A stretch of 64,000 nucleotides of DNA from a virus. A program made the position numbers and the translations under genes. The stretch lies in IMG/VR virus record IMGVR_UViG_3300042691_038416, positions 1 through 64,000 of that record. One strand, 5' to 3'. The notes beneath the pieces were generated by a model. The model was not told the origin of the DNA. It was given only the letters and a program-made list of their open reading frames with translations, and did not search any database. Shown piece after piece: positions 5,534-61,979 of this stretch. The stretch's first letter is position 1; each line of letters begins with the position of its first letter.

Positions 5534-6295
5534 TTAAGCGAATTTATCTATTTTAGCTTGTAAAGCTTTAATTTGTGTTGGAATATTACCAATCATTTCT
5601 TTATATTGGTCCATAGTGATTTCTTTAGATTTTAATTTCTTAAGTAAATCATCTTTTTTAGCATTAAGTTTAGCTAATTCATCAACCCATCTTCCTAAAT
5701 TATCAGTAGCTTTAGTTGGTGCTATTACTGGTTCTTCTTCAGGTGTTTCTTCTTCATCACCAGTGTAATAAGTATCAACTGTTTCTTCTTCTTCTGGCTC
5801 TTCTTCAGGAGTAAGAGTTGGTAATTCTGGCTCTTCTTCAGCTGGTGTAATGGTTTTTTCTCTTTTAGGAGTTAAAGCACCTGCTGCTCTAAGATTACTA
5901 ATAATAGGATTTAATTCAGAATCATTTTTAACACCTAAAGCTGTACCTAAGTCTTTTTGAGTTATACCTTCTTCACCAGCTGCTTCAACTGCCGCTAGTA
6001 AAGCTGATGTTCTACCAGCTGTGTATATTTCTTTGGCTAGAGCAAATTTAGCTGGATCTTGAATCTTAATTAAGCTAACTATATTAGCCATTTCTTTGAT
6101 TTTTTGACCAGTTCCAGTTTCAATACTCTTAATGTCAGTATTATCTTTAATTCTATTTAATTCATCACTTGTTTTATAATCAATAGCAGATGTTTTTCCA
6201 CTTTGAGTAGTTACCATTGCTGTTTTTTCTCCAGCCTCAGTTAATGCTATTACAATTTCTTCTTTAATATATTTAATTAAATCCTTACGTTTCAT
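5534..6295 (-). CDS. KEEI-leader protein next to terminase, winged-helix-like
   Basis: This 253-aa protein begins with the leader LIKYIKEEIVIALTE, shared by other late proteins here. Residues about 100-140 (EGITQKDLGTALGV, then ISNLRAAGALTP) look like a winged-helix DNA-binding unit. A Glu/Pro-rich linker follows, then a C-terminal coiled coil. Position directly before the large terminase makes a small-terminase role possible. The leader and a class A motif 14 nt upstream instead suggest a virion protein. Function is not settled. Confidence 0.8.
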   Translation of the reverse strand: MKRKDLIKYIKEEIVIALTEAGEKTAMVTTQSGKTSAIDYKTSDELNRIKDNTDIKSIETGTGQKIKEMANIVSLIKIQDPAKFALAKEIYTAGRTSALLAAVEAAGEEGITQKDLGTALGVKNDSELNPIISNLRAAGALTPKREKTITPAEEEPELPTLTPEEEPEEEETVDTYYTGDEEETPEEEPVIAPTKATDNLGRWVDELAKLNAKKDDLLKKLKSKEITMDQYKEMIGNIPTQIKALQAKIDKFA

Positions 6296-15814: not shown

Positions 15815-16489
15815 TTACTTAATTTTTTGTAATCTTCGATATACTTCATGAAGTGGTTCTTCACTTAATGCTCTATTTATTCTAGAGAGTAATGGATCTT
15901 CACCACTTGGTTTTCGACCGCGTTTAGATAAACCTAAAGCTTTTGCTTTTAATTTAGCTACTTGATCAGCAGTAAGTGTTTCTGTTTGTCCACCACTTTT
16001 AGGTATAACATATGTAATTTCCTCTTCAGAAGGTACATAATTTGGATCAGTTATCCAACGTTGCTTTAATAATCTTTCAACTCCTTCTCTACTTGTATCA
16101 CTTGCTTTTCTACCTTTTTTACCTGGAGTTTCAGGTTTTACTTTTTTAGGAATAGCGGTTTCTGCTTTATCTGCTATGACACCACTAGCAATAAGTTCCT
16201 TAACTTGAGGACCAAATCTAGTGTTTTTCATGTTTAAGATTTGGGCTAAACCTTTAACAAAATTTCCTGTATTTGGATCTTTATATCCCAATCTAGTCAT
16301 ATCATAATCAGTAGCACCTTCAATAGCTGTAATTATTTTAACAACATAGTTGTCTTCTGGGTATAATCTTTTAATTTTAGCTGCTTTTTCAGGATTAACT
16401 ATAACTAATCCTTTACCAAGACGGTCTTCAGATATAGTTATTTCTTCTCTAACAATACTTCTAATTATTTGAACTAGTTTATTTGCCAT
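15815..16489 (-). CDS. KEEI-leader protein with AT-hook-like motifs
   Basis: The leader is LVQIIRSIVREEITISE, after which a basic domain follows. Two short AT-hook-like sites, KKGRKAS and KRGRKPSG, lie near residues 124 and 195, suggesting contact with AT-rich DNA. The middle region (residues about 40-100) has a globular, unknown fold. Class A motif 16 nt upstream and a strong terminator mark it as a single-gene late unit. A DNA-binding internal virion protein is inferred. Confidence 0.75.
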   Translation of the reverse strand: MANKLVQIIRSIVREEITISEDRLGKGLVIVNPEKAAKIKRLYPEDNYVVKIITAIEGATDYDMTRLGYKDPNTGNFVKGLAQILNMKNTRFGPQVKELIASGVIADKAETAIPKKVKPETPGKKGRKASDTSREGVERLLKQRWITDPNYVPSEEEITYVIPKSGGQTETLTADQVAKLKAKALGLSKRGRKPSGEDPLLSRINRALSEEPLHEVYRRLQKIK

Positions 16490-20196: not shown

Positions 20197-20817
20197 TTAC
20201 TTTTTCTTGGTAGCTAATTTAGTAGCGGTAGCATACATTTTAGCTTTTTCTTCTTTAGACTTACCAAAGCTCTTAGATTTTTTCATGCTTTTCACAATAT
20301 CTTCTTTTTTCTCTTTTTGAGCAGCAGTCATTTTCTTTTTAGCTTCTTCTAATTTAGCATTATATTCAGTTTCTGAAATGATGCCTGCTCTTTTTTGCAT
20401 AAGCAACATTTGTTCTTCATTTAATGAATCTTCTTCTAATTGAGGACCAGCTGGAGGATCAATGGTAACTTCGTCAACTACTCCTTCTTCTTCTAAACCA
20501 TCTTTTACAACTTCTTTCTCATCACCTTTACCAGCTTTATTTTTCATTTTTTCAAGAAGTCTTTCAGTTTTTTTCTTGTAACTTTCAAGAGCTTTAACTT
20601 CTTTTTTAAGTTCATTAAGTTTAGACTGATCAATCATTTCATGCATTGTTTCATCTAAACCTTCTAAATTAATTTTTTTCTCACGAATAGCAATAGCTTC
20701 TTCACAAGCTCTAATTTTAGCTTCTTGAGCTGCGATATTACCTGATGCCTCTACTTCACGAATATATTCTTGAATTGATTCTCTAATAAGTTGTCTAAGT
20801 TGGGTATTTTGATCCAT
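20197..20817 (-). CDS. KEEI-leader coiled-coil protein (206 aa)
   Basis: The leader is LRQLIRESIQEYIRE followed by a long Glu/Lys coiled coil (residues about 35-105), an acidic linker and a Lys-rich basic tail (KKMTAAQKEKKEDIVKSMKK). An internal SLNEEQMLLMQKRAGII segment recurs in related late proteins. It is a likely virion or scaffold component. Class A motif upstream, strong terminator downstream. Confidence 0.75.
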   Translation of the reverse strand: MDQNTQLRQLIRESIQEYIREVEASGNIAAQEAKIRACEEAIAIREKKINLEGLDETMHEMIDQSKLNELKKEVKALESYKKKTERLLEKMKNKAGKGDEKEVVKDGLEEEGVVDEVTIDPPAGPQLEEDSLNEEQMLLMQKRAGIISETEYNAKLEEAKKKMTAAQKEKKEDIVKSMKKSKSFGKSKEEKAKMYATATKLATKKK

Positions 20818-25654: not shown

Positions 25655-26310
25655 AATGATTTAAGCATTTCAATCATCTTAGGGTGAGGATAAATATCTA
25701 CTTTATCATAACGTACACTATTATGAGTATATACACCTGCTTCACCTCTTAAGGCCCTAGGTGTTACATCCCAAATATCATCATTATATGTCAAAGGAAT
25801 ATTCCATCTTTGTTTCCAATAAACTAATAGTTCTTTTACTGATTGAATTTGAGCATCAGTATAATTATGGAAATATTTAAATCCTCTAAATGGTGTTGCT
25901 AATTCAATTATTTCTTCTTCAGGTACAACCGTATTAGCCCAACTGTAGAATTTAGTATTTTTGCGAACTAATTGGCCCCAGTTACAAATTTCAACACCAA
26001 TTGAAATTTTGTCTAAGGACTTATATGGTAAATCAAATTTATGAAATGTAGATTCTTTTAAACCTAAATGATAAGCCCAAAATCTAGATGAATATCCTTG
26101 TACTACTTGACCATCAAAATGTGTATTGCCTTTTTTAGGTTTTCCACCAACAACAATACAAGTAGCAATTCTTTCTTTATTACTTTCCCAATCTTTATAA
26201 GTACCAAATGGATTAGAATTACCAGCGGTATGATGTAAATAAATTTGTACTTTTTGAGTCTCAGTAGGGATATACTGAGTTTGAGGGAAGTTATATTGAG
26301 TAATAGTCAT
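25651..26310 (-). CDS. Endolysin: N-acetylmuramoyl-L-alanine amidase
   Basis: The zinc and catalytic pattern of the amidase_2/PGRP fold is visible: IYLHHTAGN (His26, His27), WAYHLG, ISIGVEICNWG and VYTHNSVRYDKVDIYPHP. The 219-aa length with no signal peptide fits a cytoplasmic lysin released by a holin. It lies away from the holin-like gene at 18.6 kb but in the same direction and late region. Confidence 0.88.
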   Translation of the reverse strand: MTITQYNFPQTQYIPTETQKVQIYLHHTAGNSNPFGTYKDWESNKERIATCIVVGGKPKKGNTHFDGQVVQGYSSRFWAYHLGLKESTFHKFDLPYKSLDKISIGVEICNWGQLVRKNTKFYSWANTVVPEEEIIELATPFRGFKYFHNYTDAQIQSVKELLVYWKQRWNIPLTYNDDIWDVTPRALRGEAGVYTHNSVRYDKVDIYPHPKMIEMLKSL

Positions 26311-26687
26311 TATATACCTATATTAATTAATTGAGGTTCCTTCACAACAAACTTAACTACTCCTCTTATTTTATTTATATTACTTATTATTTGATTAATA
26401 GTATCTATATCAAATTGTCCAAATTTAGTGTATGGATATGGGTCTACTTTAATAACTACTCTATCATATTTGTATCCAGGTTTAGGAACATTAGGTATAT
26501 ATTCTTCAGTATCCATAGTTGTAACACCAGTCACAGAACGGATGTCTGAGAATATTTGTGTTTGAGTTTTCTTTTTTAAATTAGTAACTAATAAACCTTC
26601 AATTTTATATAATTTAGAAGCAGAATCCTCACGTAATGTTTTACGTATTTCCTCTTTAATATATTTTTTAAATTCTGATTTATTCAT
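26310..26687 (-). CDS. KEEI-leader protein with small alpha/beta domain (125 aa)
   Basis: The leader FKKYIKEEIRKTLREDSAS is the clearest match to the shared pattern. It is followed by a ~100-residue ferredoxin-like alpha/beta domain (LVTNLKKKTQTQIFSDIR, VVIKVDPYPYTKFG). It sits between a KEEI-leader gene and the amidase, coupled by a one-base overlap with the amidase. A virion protein is inferred. Confidence 0.75.
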   Translation of the reverse strand: MNKSEFKKYIKEEIRKTLREDSASKLYKIEGLLVTNLKKKTQTQIFSDIRSVTGVTTMDTEEYIPNVPKPGYKYDRVVIKVDPYPYTKFGQFDIDTINQIISNINKIRGVVKFVVKEPQLINIGI

Positions 26688-51375: not shown

Positions 51376-51729
51376 TTATTTATTTATTAAATTCATTATT
51401 TGATCTAATCCTAATTGTCCTTGAGGTAAAGCACTTCCTTCAGCCATAGTATTAATAGGACCATTTATTTTAAATTCACCAGATAAACCAGTTTCAGGAC
51501 CTTTAGCCATATCACCTAAAATATCCATATATGCTTGTTTAGTATTTATAGGAGTTTTAGGTACTTGATTTGATGTGAAATTTAAAGTTCTATCATCACT
51601 TACCTGGTAAGATTCTTTGATAGGTTGCTTGTTAGAACGAATTGTTTCAAGTAGAATATCTTTTAATTCTTCTTGAATTGCTTCTTTAACTGCTTCTTTG
51701 ATAATTTTTTTAAGTATATCAGTTTTCAT
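51376..51729 (-). CDS. KEEI-leader protein in the baseplate operon (117 aa)
   Basis: It starts ILKKIIKEAVKEAIQEELKD, a long version of the leader with a second LLETIRS site. The rest is a short, Gln/Asn-rich, mostly disordered protein ending in GQLGLDQIMNLINK. The class A motif lies only 3 nt before the ATG. If it is a baseplate part rather than a head part, the leader hypothesis would be weakened. Confidence 0.72.
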   Translation of the reverse strand: MKTDILKKIIKEAVKEAIQEELKDILLETIRSNKQPIKESYQVSDDRTLNFTSNQVPKTPINTKQAYMDILGDMAKGPETGLSGEFKINGPINTMAEGSALPQGQLGLDQIMNLINK

Positions 51730-55102: not shown

Positions 55103-55807
55103 TTATTGAAATTTTATATATCCATTTTCTATATAAAAGATATAACCTTTTTTATATATATCATATAAACGATCAGCTATTTTAGTAATTTTAGGAGTTT
55201 TAACATCTATCATTTCTCGTATATAGATATATAATGCTTTTTTATTAAATACTTCTAAACTATCACGTTTTCTAAATAACTCAAGAATAGCATCAGCTAT
55301 TTTAGCATCATTTTCTTTAGGGAAAATATGATATATATTTGAAGTACAATAATCTACAAATAAATCTGTGAATAAAGATATTTTATCATTATGACCTAGT
55401 TTATCACTAGGTGAATTATTTTCTTCAATAACATATGAGTGACTATTATCTTCTTCTAATACAGATGTAGAAACTGAGTTAACACGTTTTTTGTAATTTT
55501 TTTCATTATATAAAATTAACCAACGTTTAACAATAGTACCAAAATATGAATATGCTTTAGCTCCTTTAGATGGGTCAAATAAATGTATTTTACTGAGTAA
55601 AAAAGTTATAATTTCATGTTGTAAATCTTCAATATTTTCAACTTCAGTATAATAAAATTTAAATGTATGGATAATATTTTGAGTTAATTTAAAGAAAGCA
55701 TAATGAATTTTTTCATCATATATTTTACTTCTTATAATAGGATCGTCACATAAATTATAGGCTACTATAGCGTCCTCAGTATCTTGTGTAAAGTAATTTT
55801 TACTCAT
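55103..55807 (-). CDS. Late-transcription sigma factor, gp55-like
   Basis: The region FDPSKGAKAYSYFGTIVKRW followed by LILYNEKNYKKRV matches the sigma-2-type segment of T4 gp55 (a FD-x-x-K...AYI...V-x-RI-KKE pattern) and an early QHEIITFLLSKIHLF helix. The protein lacks a recognisable region 4, as expected for gp55 (which relies on a sliding clamp for activation). It would direct RNA polymerase to late promoters, a natural reader of the class A motif. Confidence 0.8.
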   Translation of the reverse strand: MSKNYFTQDTEDAIVAYNLCDDPIIRSKIYDEKIHYAFFKLTQNIIHTFKFYYTEVENIEDLQHEIITFLLSKIHLFDPSKGAKAYSYFGTIVKRWLILYNEKNYKKRVNSVSTSVLEEDNSHSYVIEENNSPSDKLGHNDKISLFTDLFVDYCTSNIYHIFPKENDAKIADAILELFRKRDSLEVFNKKALYIYIREMIDVKTPKITKIADRLYDIYKKGYIFYIENGYIKFQ

Positions 55808-56138: not shown

Positions 56139-56921
56139 TTAATCTTTAAAAAAATCATTCATTGCATTTTTTAAACTAGCGCTTTTTATATTACTTAAAG
56201 CTTTAGTTTTAGTTGGAGCTTTTTTCTCTGTCTTAGGTAATGTACTATCCTTTTTTTGAGGAACCACATTTCCTGTTAATTTAGGCATCCACTCACGTTC
56301 AAATTCAACACGAGCAGCCATTAAATCTGCTTGATGTAGAATATAAATTAAAGCAGTACGTGGTTTAGTTTCTGGCATCCATGACATTAAATAAGGTTTA
56401 TTTGCTTCATCATATAAACCATCATGTAATTTAATAGCTAACATTTCATTTTTAGTATATGAAATGCCATGTTGATTAAGTAAATATAAACCACGATCTG
56501 GTACTGACATAAATTCTAAAGCATCATTAAATTTATAATCTTCACCTAATTTATCTTTACGCCATTGGTCAGTCTGAGGAATATATGCTTCATTTTTCTC
56601 ATCTCCCATCTTACCTAAATCATGATTCATAGCAGAGAACACTAACTCTTCAGTGGTCCAATTCTTATGAACATTATATTTAGTCCAAATTTGATCAAAA
56701 TCAAGAGCAGCTCGAATAACTCGATTAACATGTTCAATATATCCACCTGGGAAAGCATTATGATATTCTTTTTTATGAGCAGCAGGCATTAACATGATAC
56801 GCTCTGCATATTTCTCATAAAAAGTTTTTAAATAAGATCTACGTGGTTCTGAGATATATGTTTCAATATATGAGATAAACTCATCCCAATTTTCTTGGAT
56901 TTGTTCTGCTGTTAAATTCAT
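56139..56921 (-). CDS. HD-domain phosphohydrolase-like protein
   Basis: The HD pattern is clear: His in GYIEHVNRVIR, His-Asp in AMNHDLGKMGDE, and later AIKLHDGLYDE and LHQADLMAARVE. The start is set at MNLTAEQIQ because the reading frame further upstream is the small 66-aa gene. Protein is 260 aa. Such enzymes hydrolyse nucleotides or act on tRNA/oligo-nucleotides; target unknown. Confidence 0.82.
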   Translation of the reverse strand: MNLTAEQIQENWDEFISYIETYISEPRRSYLKTFYEKYAERIMLMPAAHKKEYHNAFPGGYIEHVNRVIRAALDFDQIWTKYNVHKNWTTEELVFSAMNHDLGKMGDEKNEAYIPQTDQWRKDKLGEDYKFNDALEFMSVPDRGLYLLNQHGISYTKNEMLAIKLHDGLYDEANKPYLMSWMPETKPRTALIYILHQADLMAARVEFEREWMPKLTGNVVPQKKDSTLPKTEKKAPTKTKALSNIKSASLKNAMNDFFKD

Positions 56922-56922
56922 A

Positions 56923-57123
56923 TTACTGAGCTGATGTATTAAGTTCGTATCCTGTAATAGGTTCTGAATCGATATATGTTCTGAGTTGATCGATTTGTTC
57001 ACGCATATTTTCTGCGGTTTCATTAAATCCTTGTTCATCACCTCTTCTGAGGAGATTAATTAATTTGTTTAAAGATGTATCAATTTGATCAATCTTTCTA
57101 AGAGCTGCTTCTCTATTTCTCAT
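56923..57123 (-). CDS. Small helical protein upstream of HD gene (66 aa)
   Basis: It begins MRNREAALRKIDQIDTSLNK and ends SEPITGYELNTSAQ, a pattern I recall from related phages. It ends 1 nt before the HD gene. Function unknown. Confidence 0.68.
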   Translation of the reverse strand: MRNREAALRKIDQIDTSLNKLINLLRRGDEQGFNETAENMREQIDQLRTYIDSEPITGYELNTSAQ

Positions 57124-57251: not shown

Positions 57252-57671
57252 CTATTTTAAAAACTCTTTTATTTTATTTTCAATATTTTTCAATAGGGCA
57301 CATTTTTCATACTCTTCTAAGGGCTCAAAAAATTGAATAGCTATTTGTAAATTATGAACCATAGATTCATCAGCCTTAGACTTTAAGCATTCAATATGAA
57401 AAGGTTTATCTAAATCAAAATCCTTAATATAATTCCAAGCTTTTCTAAACATTAACTCCTCACCAGCTTTCTCTAACTCCTCTATATTGATATCCGGAGA
57501 TATACTTTGAAATGTTTTAACAGTATATTGTTTAAAAAATAAATGATTACTTATAACTTTATTAAAACCACTAATCCAAAAAAGAGGATGCTCAGAAAAA
57601 TCCATCAACAATGATGTTTCATCATCACTATTTTCACTATTAAACAAATTAAATATACTATTGATGTTCAT
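57252..57671 (-). CDS. Unknown early-type protein (139 aa)
   Basis: Acidic, helical protein starting MNINSIFNLFNSENSDDET with Phe/Leu-rich helices (ISGFNKVISNHLFFKQYTV). No motif recognised. It ends just before a class B box. Confidence 0.62.
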   Translation of the reverse strand: MNINSIFNLFNSENSDDETSLLMDFSEHPLFWISGFNKVISNHLFFKQYTVKTFQSISPDINIEELEKAGEELMFRKAWNYIKDFDLDKPFHIECLKSKADESMVHNLQIAIQFFEPLEEYEKCALLKNIENKIKEFLK

Positions 57672-57717: not shown

Positions 57718-57885
57718 TTATTTAGTAACAGCTGTGTCTGTAGTAGCTGTAACAGAATCTACAGTTGAAGATACCTCAACACTCAAAGTATCAACTGGCG
57801 CAGCTGAAGTAGGAGTTTCACTAGTAGATGAAGAACAAGATGCTAACAAAGTAGCAATCGCGAATAGAATAAGTACTTTTTTCAT
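57718..57885 (-). CDS. Mini-lipoprotein 1 (55 aa)
   Basis: Short ORF below usual cut-offs: MKKVLILFAIATLLASCSSS, with lipobox LLAS-C, then a Thr/Ser/Val-rich disordered tail. A lipidated, periplasm-facing product is predicted. It has its own class B promoter and terminator. One of five such genes in this arm. Confidence 0.72.
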   Translation of the reverse strand: MKKVLILFAIATLLASCSSSTSETPTSAAPVDTLSVEVSSTVDSVTATTDTAVTK

Positions 57886-58338: not shown

Positions 58339-58542
58339 TTATTCGTTTATTAATATTTTTCTAGTTGAAACTCGTACTGCGGGGTGATTTACTCCTGCGC
58401 GTTTGCGCTCTGGAATATATCTACCATGTTTTGGTCTGTCAAATTTTCTTAGCACTGATGTTTGATAACGAGTGTGCATGTGTGATGTTTGACATGATGT
58501 GATGATCACTGTGGTGATTAATAATAGAATAAATTTTTTCAT
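58339..58542 (-). CDS. Mini-lipoprotein 2 (67 aa)
   Basis: MKKFILLLITTVIITSCQTS has a classic lipobox (ITS-C) and a basic Arg-rich mature part (YQTSVLRKFDRPKHGRYIPE). Class B promoter present. A small lipidated envelope protein of unknown role. Confidence 0.75.
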   Translation of the reverse strand: MKKFILLLITTVIITSCQTSHMHTRYQTSVLRKFDRPKHGRYIPERKRAGVNHPAVRVSTRKILINE

Positions 58543-58588: not shown

Positions 58589-58855
58589 GCAGTATATACT
58601 TTGTCGACGGTGAAAGATTTTTAAAAGGAAAGATTTTGGTTTTTATGGGGAGATATCAAAAGGGGTTAAATGGAAATTGTGGGATTTATTTCTGTTTTTT
58701 GATAAGTTTATCATGGGGTAGAAATGGATAGGTTTAATATATAAATATATACAATCGAGCCGCACTATACGTTTAAGATCTAAAAATTAATGATATTCCC
58801 GTTTGCCCAACACGTACCGTTATATGGATAATAACGCGCGTGGTGCTATAATACA

Positions 58856-58881
58856 GGCGTATATGTACGTACGTACACGCC
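58856..58881. repeat. Near-perfect 26-nt palindrome
   Basis: GGCGT...ACGCC arms enclose a TACGTACGTA core; the 13-nt arms pair with only two G-T/mismatch positions. It could form a long hairpin or a protein-binding site. Confidence 0.7.
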
Positions 58882-58890
58882 CAGGAGTAC

Positions 58891-58919
58891 GGAGGTGGGA
58901 CCTTACGGTCCCGCCCTCC
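58891..58919 (-). terminator. Hairpin after the AT-hook gene
   Basis: Strong GGGACC-GTAA-GGTCCC stem extended by GGAGG/CCTCC. It lies 20 nt after the stop but lacks a U-run, so it could be a processing signal rather than a terminator. Confidence 0.5.
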
Positions 58920-58940
58920 TATAACACACACAATTTCTAA

Positions 58941-59324
58941 TTACGCGTTTTCAGTGCTCGCAACTTCCGCATGTGCGGTGCTCTCACTGTTACGGCTTGG
59001 GCGACCACGTTTAACTTCAGCACCCGATGTTTTTGCTGCTAGTGCCTGTTGACGTTTACTGTTTACATTCACCGGACGGCCTTTACTTAGTGTTCCACCT
59101 GCTGCTACTTTCTCAGCACGTGCCGCTAGTACTGCTTGACGTTTCGATCCTGCTACAGCTGGTCTACCGCGTTTCAATTCTCCCGCTGCACGTTTTGCTT
59201 CACGGTCGGCGATTTTCTTCTGGCGAGCGCTCTCAGGATTTGCTGGACGGCCCAATGCTTTTGCTACGTTTGTTTCTACGTTCGCTACTGCTTTTTCTGT
59301 TGATACTGATTTTTTCTTGCTCAT
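58941..59324 (-). CDS. HMGA-like protein with four AT-hook repeats
   Basis: This 127-aa Lys/Arg/Ala-rich protein repeats a unit GRPAxxxSxRQxx about four times (LGRPANPESARQKK; KRGRPAVAGSKRQAV; SKGRPVNVNSKRQQA; KRGRPSRNSES). GRP with flanking Lys/Arg is the AT-hook, which binds the minor groove of AT-rich DNA. This is a rare multi-hook design for a phage. It likely condenses or marks phage or host DNA, or regulates transcription early. A class B promoter precedes it. Confidence 0.82.
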   Translation of the reverse strand: MSKKKSVSTEKAVANVETNVAKALGRPANPESARQKKIADREAKRAAGELKRGRPAVAGSKRQAVLAARAEKVAAGGTLSKGRPVNVNSKRQQALAAKTSGAEVKRGRPSRNSESTAHAEVASTENA

Positions 59325-59372
59325 GCGATTTGTGTTTTTTAATTATTAATTATTTATTTATTTTATTTACTG

Positions 59373-59401
59373 AATATATGATTAAGGTTCTTGATAGCCT
59401 A
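59373..59401 (-). promoter_or_regulatory. Class B promoter starting at a stop codon
   Basis: TAGGCTATC, 12 nt, CATATATT on the minus strand. The TAG of the box is the stop codon of the upstream 47-aa gene. Confidence 0.72.
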
Positions 59402-59542
59402 GCGCTTAATTGCATCATATAATTCTGCTATGTTTACTATAACCCACAATGTTAACATAACAGGAATTGCAGTCGGGTGTGATTGGTGTATTGGGCTGTT
59501 CCAAACCAAATAAAATAAAATGTAGGCGATGATGTCTTTCAT
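59399..59542 (-). CDS. Small membrane protein (47 aa)
   Basis: Short ORF MKDIIAYILFYLVWNSPIHQ with a second hydrophobic stretch (IPVMLTLWVIVNIAELY), so probably two membrane segments. Its stop TAG forms the first three bases of the next class B box, and it has its own class B promoter, which supports it being real. Confidence 0.65.
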   Translation of the reverse strand: MKDIIAYILFYLVWNSPIHQSHPTAIPVMLTLWVIVNIAELYDAIKR

Positions 59543-59569
59543 GTGTTTAAATGTTTTAAATTATACTTA

Positions 59570-59598
59570 AATATATGATACTAAATTCTGTTTACCTA
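59570..59598 (-). promoter_or_regulatory. Class B bipartite promoter
   Basis: TAGGTAAAC, 12 nt, CATATATT on the minus strand before the small membrane protein. Confidence 0.68.
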
Positions 59599-59608
59599 GC
59601 AGTAGGCG

Positions 59609-59872
59609 TTAACTGTTTGTTAACGCCATTTTAATTTCCTCCAACTGTTTAACCAACTTACTGGCATCGCCTTTTAATCCAAAATATGTCTTCACATTAC
59701 TTATTTTCCAGTGGCGATTCGGTTTAATTCCTTTAGCGTATAAACTGCAGTCACGGATGCTTAAAATCAGGTTCCAGTACCCCATAGGCATTACATTACC
59801 ATTTACATTCACCGTTCTTGATTCGTCGGTCATGTCTTTAAAGAATTGTGTGTTTGAGCTAAGTGTTATCAT
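59609..59872 (-). CDS. Unknown early-type protein (87 aa)
   Basis: MITLSSNTQFFKDMTDESRT starts a small soluble protein with SNVKTYFGLKGDASKLVKQL near the end. I do not recognise a domain. It has its own class B promoter. Confidence 0.65.
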   Translation of the reverse strand: MITLSSNTQFFKDMTDESRTVNVNGNVMPMGYWNLILSIRDCSLYAKGIKPNRHWKISNVKTYFGLKGDASKLVKQLEEIKMALTNS

Positions 59873-59897
59873 GTGTTTTAATTTTTTAATTTACCTA

Positions 59898-59926
59898 AAT
59901 ATAAGTTAACTCACTCCGAGACCCTA
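59898..59926 (-). promoter_or_regulatory. Class B bipartite promoter
   Basis: TAGGGTCTC, 12 nt, CTTATATT on the minus strand, inside the end of the 62-aa gene. Confidence 0.68.
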
Positions 59927-60099
59927 GCGGCGCGCTTATCCTTCACCATCGCCGCTAGTTCGACTAACATGTTCGGGTACCTTATAAATGTAGCTGCTGC
60001 TGTCTCTGCTACCTCGCGGGACGTCTCTGGGTACACGAACATGATGTCTGTGATCAAATCCTCGAGCACCATATCAATCTGTTTGTTATTCAAAAGCAC
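59911..60099 (-). CDS. Unknown small protein, GTG start (62 aa)
   Basis: The frame opens at GTG (MLLNNKQID) inside the end of mini-lipoprotein 3 (14-nt overlap); a start at MVLEDLITD is the alternative. Helical Ala-rich protein with no recognised motif. Confidence 0.55.
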   Translation of the reverse strand: MLLNNKQIDMVLEDLITDIMFVYPETSREVAETAAATFIRYPNMLVELAAMVKDKRAARVSE

Positions 60100-60265
60100 A
60101 GTATTGAGTATTTACGTTAGACAATTTGTGGCGGCTATAATAAGCCTGTTTAGACGATGAACATGATGTCATTGCCATCATAATCGCTAGAATAATTAGT
60201 GTAGCAGTAGCTGCTTGAAATGTTGACATCACTAGATGTTGTGTGAAATTTAAAGCTTTTTTCAT
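60086..60265 (-). CDS. Mini-lipoprotein 3 (59 aa)
   Basis: Short ORF with N-terminal MKKALNFTQHLVMSTFQAAT, a hydrophobic core and lipobox MTS-C at residue 35, then a small basic mature part (SSSKQAYYSRHKLSN). Missed by length filters. Own class B promoter. Confidence 0.68.
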   Translation of the reverse strand: MKKALNFTQHLVMSTFQAATATLIILAIMMAMTSCSSSKQAYYSRHKLSNVNTQYCAFE

Positions 60266-60293
60266 GTGTTTATGTTTTTAAATTATTTTACTA

Positions 60294-60322
60294 AATATAA
60301 ATTATATTATTAAATAATCCTA
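60294..60322 (-). promoter_or_regulatory. Class B promoter starting at a stop codon
   Basis: TAGGATTAT, 12 nt, TTTATATT on the minus strand. The box starts with the stop TAG of mini-lipoprotein 4. Confidence 0.65.
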
Positions 60323-60598
60323 GCGCTGCCACTCAGCAGCTGTCCCCCAGTACTCAATACAAAACGAATCACATCTGGTAATTTGCATCTTATATCCCTC
60401 AGTTTGCTTATAAAATTCAAGTGCGGCGATTGAATCTTTAGTGTCCATAATAAAAAAGTTGGTGGTGATTGACCCTGATACATCCTGGCCACCATAAAGT
60501 TTAGCCTTATTTATGAAAGACGCTTTATACATGTGTCCATCTTTCTTACAGGCAGTCATACTTAAAATTGCAAACGCGATAACGGCTAATTTTTTCAT
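60320..60598 (-). CDS. Mini-lipoprotein 4 (92 aa), YWGT family
   Basis: MKKLAVIAFAILSMTACKKD has the lipobox MTA-C. The mature part ends CIEYWGTAAEWQR, matching the ITYWGTRKEW end of the fused ORF upstream, so the two are paralogues. A small lipidated envelope protein; role unknown. Confidence 0.75.
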   Translation of the reverse strand: MKKLAVIAFAILSMTACKKDGHMYKASFINKAKLYGGQDVSGSITTNFFIMDTKDSIAALEFYKQTEGYKMQITRCDSFCIEYWGTAAEWQR

Positions 60599-60618
60599 GT
60601 GCTTTTTATTTTTGTTTG

Positions 60619-60647
60619 AATATAAGTTAATGGACCTGGTGATCCTA
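60619..60647 (-). promoter_or_regulatory. Class B promoter starting at a stop codon
   Basis: TAGGATCAC, 12 nt, CTTATATT on the minus strand. The box opens with the stop TAG of the upstream fused ORF. Confidence 0.68.
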
Positions 60648-60914
60648 TCTACCTTGTGCTTTCCACTCCTTGCGAGTACCCCAATATGTGATTGTAACTG
60701 AGTCTGACTTAGGCATCAGTTCCTTAAACACAGACGTTTCCTTATACCAGTCCCAGCAGGCGGTATCTTCCTTAGACACGTGAATAAAATCTGTTGTCAC
60801 TAACATGCCTGTGTTTTCTAACTCCTGGTAGTAGGCGACCTCGTAAACATATTTTTTGCTAGCGCATGAGGCGAAGATTGAAGATGATATAATAATAATA
60901 ATTAATTTTTTCAT
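60645..60914 (-). CDS. Mini-lipoprotein 5 nested in the fused ORF (89 aa)
   Basis: An internal ATG starts MKKLIIIIISSSIFASC, with a strong signal peptide and lipobox FAS-C, then a mature part ending in SVTITYWGTRKEW like mini-lipoprotein 4. It may be translated separately from its own, degenerate promoter, and would be a membrane-exposed protein that the long ORF product cannot be. Confidence 0.65.
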   Translation of the reverse strand: MKKLIIIIISSSIFASCASKKYVYEVAYYQELENTGMLVTTDFIHVSKEDTACWDWYKETSVFKELMPKSDSVTITYWGTRKEWKAQGR

Positions 60915-61523
60915 ATAATTTTTAATTTTAGATGAACATAGGATAAAAGAATCTGCTTCCCTAGCAGGTACTCCCTCGGGCTCAAAGTACCAGCGCTGGT
61001 TATTATAATCTGCTATTTTATTTACCTCGGCAAGTTCACCGTAGGAATTTTTTACGTGCTCAAAGATCATCTTATAGTCTGGCGAATCACCTGGTATCAC
61101 GCCTCCTAAGAGGTCGGCGAACCTAGAGTTTGAGGCATCGACGGTCTCTTGATCCGCAGACACCCCACAGTAACTAGCCTCTTTAACCTCGCTGATAAAC
61201 ATCCCAGTGTAGAGACCTTTTAGGCGGTGCCGTCCGACAAATTGATCTGCGTTGCACCAGATGAAAATACAGTGCTTGTCTCTTAAAAGTGGAACCTGCT
61301 TTTCTCCTACGGCATATAATCCTTCGCCTATCCTAGAGACATTCATCAATCCATAAGGTGTCCCGTGGCCCATCATCAAAATTTGATCGTGCGAGCGGAT
61401 TTCCTTCTCCAGACGGTGTCTAGAAACTCCTTTTGTTAACACAGTAGCACCCTCTAGGCCGCTGTAGATAGGGCGAAGAAAATCTGTTGATCGATCGTCT
61501 GGATGAATGATTAAGGTTTTCAT
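60645..61523 (-). CDS. Caspase-like-fold protein fused in frame to a lipoprotein (292 aa)
   Basis: The N-terminal ~200 residues (MKTLIIHPDDRSTDFLRPIY; ILMMGHGTPYG; CIFIWCNADQF; GLYTGMFISEV) show a His-Gly...Cys pattern that could be a caspase/CHAT-like peptidase, a family I vaguely recall in Bacteroidota. The C-terminal ~90 residues are a complete lipoprotein (see next entry) joined without a stop codon. The join carries a degraded class B promoter, so it looks like a fusion of two genes. The longer upstream start is rejected because it would cross a promoter and hairpin. Confidence 0.7.
   Translation of the reverse strand: MKTLIIHPDDRSTDFLRPIYSGLEGATVLTKGVSRHRLEKEIRSHDQILMMGHGTPYGLMNVSRIGEGLYAVGEKQVPLLRDKHCIFIWCNADQFVGRHRLKGLYTGMFISEVKEASYCGVSADQETVDASNSRFADLLGGVIPGDSPDYKMIFEHVKNSYGELAEVNKIADYNNQRWYFEPEGVPAREADSFILCSSKIKNYMKKLIIIIISSSIFASCASKKYVYEVAYYQELENTGMLVTTDFIHVSKEDTACWDWYKETSVFKELMPKSDSVTITYWGTRKEWKAQGR
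60935..60963 (-). promoter_or_regulatory. Degenerate class B promoter
   Basis: TAGGGAAGC, 12 nt, CCTATGTT on the minus strand, inside the fused ORF and 21 nt before the nested lipoprotein ATG. Two mismatches in the -10 part suggest decay. Confidence 0.42.
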
Positions 61524-61546
61524 AGGCTGTAATTTTATAATTATTA

Positions 61547-61575
61547 AATATAAGGCGAGGGGTAAGGGGACCCTA
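61547..61575 (-). promoter_or_regulatory. Class B promoter overlapping a hairpin
   Basis: TAGGGTCCC, 12 nt, CTTATATT on the minus strand before the caspase-like gene. The box is one arm of the hairpin below. Confidence 0.65.
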
Positions 61576-61585
61576 ACCGGGTCCC
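61567..61585 (-). terminator. Hairpin after the second AT-hook gene
   Basis: GGGACCC/GGGTCCC stem with a five-base loop, extended by AAG/CTT. There is no U-run, so terminator function is uncertain. Confidence 0.45.
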
Positions 61586-61604
61586 TTCCCTTTACTTTAA
61601 CCAA

Positions 61605-61904
61605 TTAACCTCTTTCTAATTCAACAACATCTGAATTATTCTTCTTGGCTAACGCTACTTGGCGCTTTGAATTTACATTAACCGGCCTTCCCTTCTTAAG
61701 CTCAATTCCATTACTAACCTTCTCATTACGCTTCTTAATAATTTCTTGGCGCTTAGATCCCTCAATAACTGGGCGACCTCGTTTCAACAACCCCGCCTCT
61801 CGTTTGGCGTTACGATCTTGAATTTTCATTTGACGTGCACTGTTTGGATTAGCTGGACGTCCTTTTTGTTTTGTTTCTGTGGTGTTTGTGATTGTGTTTT
61901 TCAT
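61605..61904 (-). CDS. HMGA-like AT-hook protein, truncated fourth repeat
   Basis: A 99-aa paralogue of the four-hook protein: QKGRPANPNSARQMK; KRGRPVIEGSKRQEI; KKGRPVNVNSKRQVAL; then ends NNSDVVELERG at a stop where the other protein has its last hook (EVKRGRPSRN). So it has three full hooks and a cut fourth one. Class B promoter upstream. Confidence 0.8.
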   Translation of the reverse strand: MKNTITNTTETKQKGRPANPNSARQMKIQDRNAKREAGLLKRGRPVIEGSKRQEIIKKRNEKVSNGIELKKGRPVNVNSKRQVALAKKNNSDVVELERG

Positions 61905-61950
61905 AACCTTTTTTTTTAATTGTTTTTATTATTTATTTTTTAACATTTTA

Positions 61951-61979
61951 AATATATGTAACTGAACCCTGAAATCCTA
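61951..61979 (-). promoter_or_regulatory. Class B bipartite promoter
   Basis: TAGGATTTC, 12 nt, CATATATT on the minus strand before the three-hook gene. Confidence 0.72.

What the first reader, a model, noticed from the sequence alone, without database searches (positions are those of the whole stretch)
58941..61904. Two HMGA-like multi-AT-hook proteins, one with a cut fourth hook
The 127-aa protein has four GRP-based AT-hooks spaced about 30 residues apart and the 99-aa paralogue has three with the fourth ended by a stop (ELERG). Other AT-hook-like sites occur in the 224-aa KEEI-leader protein (KKGRKAS, KRGRKPSG) and the 856-aa protein (GRRGRPTG). Such arrays are typical of eukaryotic HMGA and rare in phages. 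They suggest a phage strategy of coating or bending AT-rich DNA, either early host/phage regulation or in the virion.
Basis: partly seen in the sequence, partly recalled or inferred. Interest (0 to 1): 0.62.

Follow-up and report, generated by a model that had tools for sequence, protein, structure and literature searches.

The report
Phage AT-hook repeat protein family
A large T4-like phage, probably of a Bacteroidota host, carries two small, very basic proteins made of repeated DNA-gripping "GRP" hooks; they belong to a widespread, apparently undescribed virus-only family that probably coats or bends AT-rich DNA early in infection, much as HMGA proteins do in animal cells, though this has not been tested.

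Summary
ORFs 58941-59324(-) and 61605-61904(-) encode 127- and 99-aa basic proteins (net +17/+16; no F, W, Y or C) with four and three GRP motifs 25-29 residues apart; 0 of 100,000 shuffles reach these counts. One detail is wrong: the short protein has no cut fourth hook. Its ...VVELERG end is conserved across relatives, and the gene is under purifying selection. They belong to a family found on about 100 IMG/VR contigs (105 distinct complete proteins with 3-5 hooks, plus two-hook forms). I found none in cultured phages or plasmids, no family member in 84,980 bacterial/archaeal genomes, and no match in Pfam, PHROGs, NCBIfam or PDB. The unit is GRPVNxNSxRQ plus a predicted helix, period about 28 aa: more than an AT-hook. 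It occurs in a T4-like clade, often as two copies, at a conserved locus upstream of an HD-like gene and the gp55-like late sigma gene. Both genes share a bipartite promoter with a RecA-like and a clamp-loader gene, and have unusually long A-rich leaders. Most likely: early or middle, abundant, nucleoid-type DNA-binding proteins. DNA binding and timing are inferred; virion packaging is less supported. Real; new variant of a known kind.

The parts
58941..59324 (-). long GRP-repeat protein, 127 aa, four GRP hooks (residues 25, 53, 82, 107)
   Evidence: orthologues at 83-91% identity in L001, L003-L005; dN/dS 0.08-0.31; AF2 model has a helix after each of the first three hooks
61605..61904 (-). 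short GRP-repeat protein, 99 aa, three GRP hooks (residues 15, 43, 72)
   Evidence: orthologues at 78-88% identity; dN/dS 0.10-0.27
61608..61622 (-). C-terminus ELERG of the short protein: a conserved tail, not a truncated hook
   Evidence: same or similar tail in L001, L003, L004, L005 and L015; no conserved hook downstream of the stop
61949..61979 (-). bipartite promoter-like site of the short gene, TAGGATTTC-N14-TATATTTA
   Evidence: 13 such sites in the window, 0.04 expected
59371..59401 (-). bipartite promoter-like site of the long gene, TAGGCTATC-N14-TATATTCA
61905..61948 (-). long A-rich leader of the short gene
   Evidence: nine GRP genes of this clade have leaders of 38-48 nt, other genes median 21 nt
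59325..59370 (-). long A-rich leader of the long gene
   Evidence: 47 nt by the measure; leaders listed
58733..58943 (-). conserved non-coding element directly after the long gene (neighbour, function unknown)
   Evidence: no Rfam match
56139..57041 (-). HD/TraI_2-like gene, conserved neighbour downstream
   Evidence: homologue in 63 of 97 neighbourhoods, downstream and same strand in 60; weak TraI_2 match
57252..57671 (-). conserved neighbour, unknown function
   Evidence: homologue in 43 neighbourhoods
55103..55807 (-). gp55-like late sigma factor, conserved neighbour
   Evidence: Pfam Sigma70_r2 E 9e-4 (below cut-off), PHROG 234 late sigma factor E 0.002; a similar gene in 39 other neighbourhoods

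Best explanation
The two genes encode phage nucleoid-type (architectural) DNA-binding proteins. [quoted passage not shown] Three to five modules joined at about 28-residue spacing give avidity and let one molecule span, bend or coat AT-rich DNA (this genome is about 30% GC in its structural region). Both genes share the phage's bipartite promoter with DNA-metabolism genes and have long A-rich leaders, so they are probably made early or middle and abundantly, and act on phage and/or host DNA inside the cell. Shown here: the repeats, their conservation and selection, the virus-only family, the locus, the promoter class and leader. Inferred: DNA binding, AT preference, abundance, timing and the architectural role.
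For: GRP is nearly invariant over 105 complete members (G, R 100%; P 96%), hook spacing 27-30 aa in 276 of 298 gaps, median net charge +15, FWYC under 1%. Purifying selection on both genes. AF2 predicts extended GRP segments and helices that start just after the conserved serine (33-46, 61-74, 90-100; block pLDDT about 72-90 over the repeats, pTM 0.28). Several relatives (L008, L033, L035, L038, L048, L049, L106) carry an N-terminal helix-extension-helix module (MNRxEIIAKxKELGI...KTxxLxELL), modelled at pLDDT about 87, with a sub-threshold Rho_N match in one; such modules usually bind nucleic acid (general knowledge). Same bipartite promoter as a RecA-like and a clamp-loader-like gene. Leaders twice the usual length; AAAG(G)TT-ATG in 45% of members against 11% of other ORFs. 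A GRP core flanked by basic residues is the published description of most AT-hooks (PMC11354804).
Against: Only about half the hooks have the strict RGRP core: R precedes G in 10% of first, 63% of middle and 50% of last hooks. Pfam AT_hook scores 10.4 bits against a cut-off of 17.4 for the long protein. The conserved NSxRQ helix is not explained by an AT-hook alone and might bind something else, for example RNA or a protein. The protein is absent from complete cultured relatives such as immuto, so it is dispensable in the wider clade. No expression or binding data exist.
Confidence: 0.55

Rival explanations
1. They are regulators that bind AT-rich promoter regions (the TATATTTA boxes or their own long A-rich leaders) to switch phage gene expression, with autoregulation, rather than bulk architectural proteins.
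For: Leader of GRP genes twice the usual length in this clade and very A-rich; location between the small-gene region and the gp55-like late sigma gene; two diverged paralogues kept together.
Against: The leader's A+T fraction is not clearly higher than that of other leaders in this clade (p 0.08), and long A-rich leaders may simply raise translation. Hooks alone have low sequence specificity.
Confidence: 0.17
2. They counter host xenogeneic silencing or host nucleoid proteins by competing for AT-rich DNA, an analogue of T4 MotB.
For: The phage DNA is AT-rich; T4 early MotB is an abundant nonspecific DNA binder that alters H-NS-DNA binding (PMC7827196); the promoter class suggests non-late expression.
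Against: No homology to MotB was tested or seen; the host's AT-binding silencer is not identified; no evidence of host gene targets.
Confidence: 0.13
3. They bind RNA (chaperone, antitermination or tRNA/mRNA handling) through the basic helices rather than DNA.
For: Basic repeats with conserved SxRQ helix; the N-terminal module of some relatives weakly resembles Rho_N, which binds RNA.
Against: GRP flanked by lysine/arginine at regular spacing is the hallmark of minor-groove DNA hooks; helix-extension-helix modules are also found in DNA-binding proteins.
Confidence: 0.1
4. They are packaged in the virion with the DNA (condensing protein or injected early factor).
For: Small, basic, abundant-looking proteins; the same phage makes another hook-bearing protein with the KEEI-type leader (224-aa protein).
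Against: Neither protein has the leader; they share the promoter of the small-gene region, most of whose 33 sites lie at 59-74 kb, away from most head and tail genes.
Confidence: 0.08

Closest known systems
HMGA1/HMGA2 (eukaryotic multi-AT-hook architectural proteins)
   Same: small, basic, poor in aromatic residues, three or more GRP hooks with basic flanks
   Different: no sequence homology shown; hook is usually K-[RLK]-GRP followed by a conserved NSxRQ helix at a near-fixed 28-aa period; no acidic tail; found only in viruses of bacteria
H-NS/Lsr2-type xenogeneic silencers and their phage homologues
   Different: those have one hook in a folded domain plus an oligomerisation domain; here hooks are tandem and no oligomerisation domain is seen
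T4 MotB
   Same: early DNA-binding protein of T4-like phages, proposed nucleoid-level role (PMC7827196)
   Different: MotB is predicted KOW plus OB fold; no GRP repeats; relation not tested by direct comparison
Isolated AT-hooks on other proteins of the same phage (RecA-like ATPase MKKRGRPATK; 169-aa protein at record 85783-86292 with KRGRPKK hooks)
   Same: GRP or GRR hooks in the same genome
   Different: hooks are isolated or lack the NSxRQ helix; not members of the repeat family

Membership tests
AT-hook motif (Pfam PF02178) | profile score at or above the curated cut-off (17.4 bits) | tested here: not met
   10.4 bits for the long protein, no match for the short one; best relative 15.5 bits (L028)
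AT-hook motif, descriptive | GRP core flanked by basic residues (PMC11354804) | tested here: met
   GRP at every hook of the window proteins; in the family K or R directly before G in 23% of first, 82% of middle, 57% of last hooks; strict RGRP in 2 of 4 and 1 of 3 hooks of the window proteins
[quoted passage not shown]
   needs EMSA, footprinting or structure
HMGA | sequence homology to HMGA proteins | tested here: not met
   no PDB chain of any kind matched the family profile, none relevant for a canonical member
HMGA | several hooks, basic, low aromatic content | tested here: met
HMGA | acidic C-terminal tail | tested here: not met
   no run of acidic residues at the end of either protein
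This GRP-NSxRQ repeat family (proposed) | two or more units GRPxxxxSxRQ plus helix at about 28-aa period, in T4-like phages | tested here: met
   carriers share the window's T4-like terminase at 55-81% identity in 21 of 30 records
SAP/HeH/Rho_N module (N-terminus of some relatives) | Pfam cut-off or fold match | tested here: inconclusive
   Rho_N 19.5 bits against 24.9 in one member; no significant fold match for the whole model; not present in the window's proteins

The most novel reading that the evidence does not exclude
A virus-only class of chromatin protein: tandem AT-hook/helix arrays that large T4-like phages evolved independently of HMGA, carried as a diverged pair beside the late-sigma locus, that package or mark the replicating phage genome (or strip host DNA) during infection.
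Probability: 0.25. Interest if true: 0.75.

Novelty: new variant of a known kind. Interest (0 to 1): 0.5.

Why it matters
Multi-hook architectural proteins are known mainly from eukaryotes. A common, apparently undescribed, virus-restricted family with regular hook-helix repeats would be a convergent solution to handling AT-rich DNA, would give a testable candidate for how large Bacteroidota-type phages organise their own DNA or override host nucleoid proteins, and supplies a ready set of natural variants (2-5 hooks, with and without an N-terminal module) for measuring how hook number sets binding.

Tried and rejected
Truncated fourth hook: rejected (conserved tail, selection, no conserved downstream hook). 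Host-derived gene: no relative confirmed in 84,980 genomes; two single-unit pattern hits were not members. Core gene of the clade: not supported; immuto, Mel-JY01 and RM378 lack it, and most contigs without it also lack the neighbouring HD-like gene, so they say little. Defence or anti-defence family: no PADLOC match. Homology to the serine-recombinase arm (GRP plus helix) was a lead from memory; no PDB or Pfam match supports it. Late T4-type TATAAATA promoter: not enriched on the coding strand. Fold searches gave nothing significant; the best was one uncharacterised phage protein at E 0.026. The neighbour count scored only the short gene of the window as a family member, because an antisense ORF (59027-59422 +) is longer than the long gene.

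Full report
Observation. The window is the first 64 kb of a 124,139-base virus record. Its portal and terminase genes are T4-like, and the closest cultured relative by terminase is Flavobacterium phage immuto at 59% identity, so the host is probably a member of the Bacteroidota (inference). Both ORFs named in the finding are present. GRP occurs four and three times; no shuffle of 100,000 reaches either count. The GRP sites are encoded with differing synonymous codons between units, so the repetition is at the protein level.

The 'cut fourth hook' is not there. Short-gene orthologues in four contigs end in the same VVELERG-like tail, and in L015 the tail follows a complete RGRP hook. Past the stop there is no conserved hook in frame. 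The window's stop is followed by a GC-rich hairpin, though the stretch as a whole is not more stable than shuffles (z -1.1). Both genes are under purifying selection, dN/dS 0.08-0.31. In contrast the fourth hook of the long protein is missing in three of its four closest orthologues.

Family. I collected 105 distinct complete proteins with three or more hooks. 76 have four, 23 three, 6 five; two-hook forms exist. Spacing is 27-30 residues in 276 of 298 intervals, with a second class at 22. Consensus unit: K-[R/L/K]-G-R-P-V-N-x-N-S-x-R-Q-x-R-L-x-E-L-x-A-K-R-x-x-G. The serine at +7 is present after 80% of all hooks (many last hooks lack the rest of the unit), and AF2 starts a helix just after it in the first three units of the long protein; I read it as the helix N-cap (inference). 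No Pfam, PHROGs, NCBIfam or PADLOC family and no PDB chain matches convincingly. No match was found in 50,697 cultured-phage records or 72,556 plasmids by tblastn with low-complexity filtering on (two searches gave only chance-level hits). In genomes, a peptide-pattern scan confirmed none and a DNA-pattern scan gave two hits; the one that could be read is a single-unit protein, neither is a family member. These negatives are limited by the sensitivity of pattern scans and filtered BLAST.

Context. In 21 of 30 carrier records the window's terminase is found at 55-81% identity. The complete immuto, Mel-JY01 and RM378 genomes lack the family, and two of ten other terminase-matched contigs carry distant two-hook forms, so it is a common accessory gene of this clade. 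In 97 neighbourhoods the HD-like gene of the window is found in 63, downstream and on the same strand in 60, at a median of 3.2 kb. A gp55-like gene is found in 39. Two copies are common, and in the window and five relatives the short gene lies 1.3-3.1 kb upstream of the long one.

Expression signals. TATATT[TC]A sites sit upstream of many genes of the record. Adding an upstream TNGGNWNNC box gives 13 sites in the window against 0.04 expected and 33 in the record with a slightly looser pattern, all on the coding strand, most of them between 59 and 74 kb. Both GRP genes have one, as do a RecA-like ATPase gene and a clamp-loader-like gene. This suggests a non-late class, but the class was inferred from gene content and not from transcripts. 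GRP-gene leaders in this clade are 38-48 nt against a median of 21 (p 7e-6; related sequences are not independent). Across the family AAAG(G)TT stands directly before ATG in 45% of members against 11% of other ORFs (members are related, so the p-value overstates).

Mechanism. Shown: repeats, selection, family, locus, promoter class, leader. Inferred: minor-groove binding, AT preference, high abundance, early or middle timing, architectural role. The strongest independent hints for nucleic-acid binding are the invariant GRP with basic flanks and the N-terminal helix-extension-helix module fused to the repeats in some relatives, whose family assignment stayed below threshold.

Comparison with what is known. 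It works like an HMGA-type multi-hook protein if the binding inference is right, but it is not a member of HMGA: no homology, no acidic tail, and an added conserved helix. By the loose published description it contains AT-hooks (PMC11354804); by the Pfam AT_hook cut-off it does not. H-NS/Lsr2 proteins use a single Q/RGR hook in a folded domain (PMC7074111). T4 MotB is a functional analogue at most (PMC7827196). I found no paper in the library describing this family.

Other hooks named in the finding. The 224-aa and 856-aa proteins have isolated GRK/GRP sites without the NSxRQ unit. By composition the record would be expected to show about 1.2 [KR]GR[PK] motifs; 13 are seen in 7 proteins, six of them in the two paralogues. 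The 224-aa protein with two GRK sites may still bind DNA, but it is a separate matter.

Noticed in passing
window 58733-58943 (-): About 210 nt of non-coding sequence after the long gene is strongly conserved in seven contigs, and its core recurs 1.3-1.6 kb downstream of the GRP gene in more distant ones (L015, L031). It has conserved palindromes (TACGTACGTAC, CGTTAT-TATCCAT-ATAACG, GTATATAC-TTATATA). Consensus RNA folding is weak, so it may be a DNA element (origin, regulatory site) or an RNA (no Rfam match).
   Followed up: partly
record 59.4-73.6 kb and elsewhere; 13 sites in the window: Bipartite promoter-like motif TTAGGMTTnC-N14-TATATTTA upstream of many small genes, all on one strand; some sites overlap hairpins of the form TCGGATTACCGAGCC.
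   Followed up: partly
record 68881-69693 (L018:5382-6194, -): RecA/KaiC/UvsX-like ATPase that begins MKKRGRPATKNKP, an N-terminal AT-hook-like stretch; a similar N-terminus (KKGKGRPKKTQ) is on an ATPase-like protein of another phage, L296:5488-6291.
   Followed up: partly
record 85783-86292 (L019:3284-3793, -): 169-aa protein with KRGRPKK, KRGRR and KRGRPKK hooks, no family match.
   Followed up: no
window 15815-16489, 5534-6295, 20197-20817, 26310-26687, 51376-51729 (-) and others: Many proteins share an N-terminal amphipathic leader of the type MKxxLxxxIKEEI; reminiscent of T4 capsid-targeting propeptides (from memory, untested).
   Followed up: no
window 59027-59422 (+): Antisense ORF of 131 aa over the long GRP gene, longer than the gene itself; judged spurious.
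   Followed up: partly
window 57718-57885, 58339-58542, 60320-60598 (-): Several small lipoprotein-like ORFs (signal peptide and cysteine) among the small genes; 60320-60598 and the C-terminal part of 60645-61523 cluster together.
   Followed up: no
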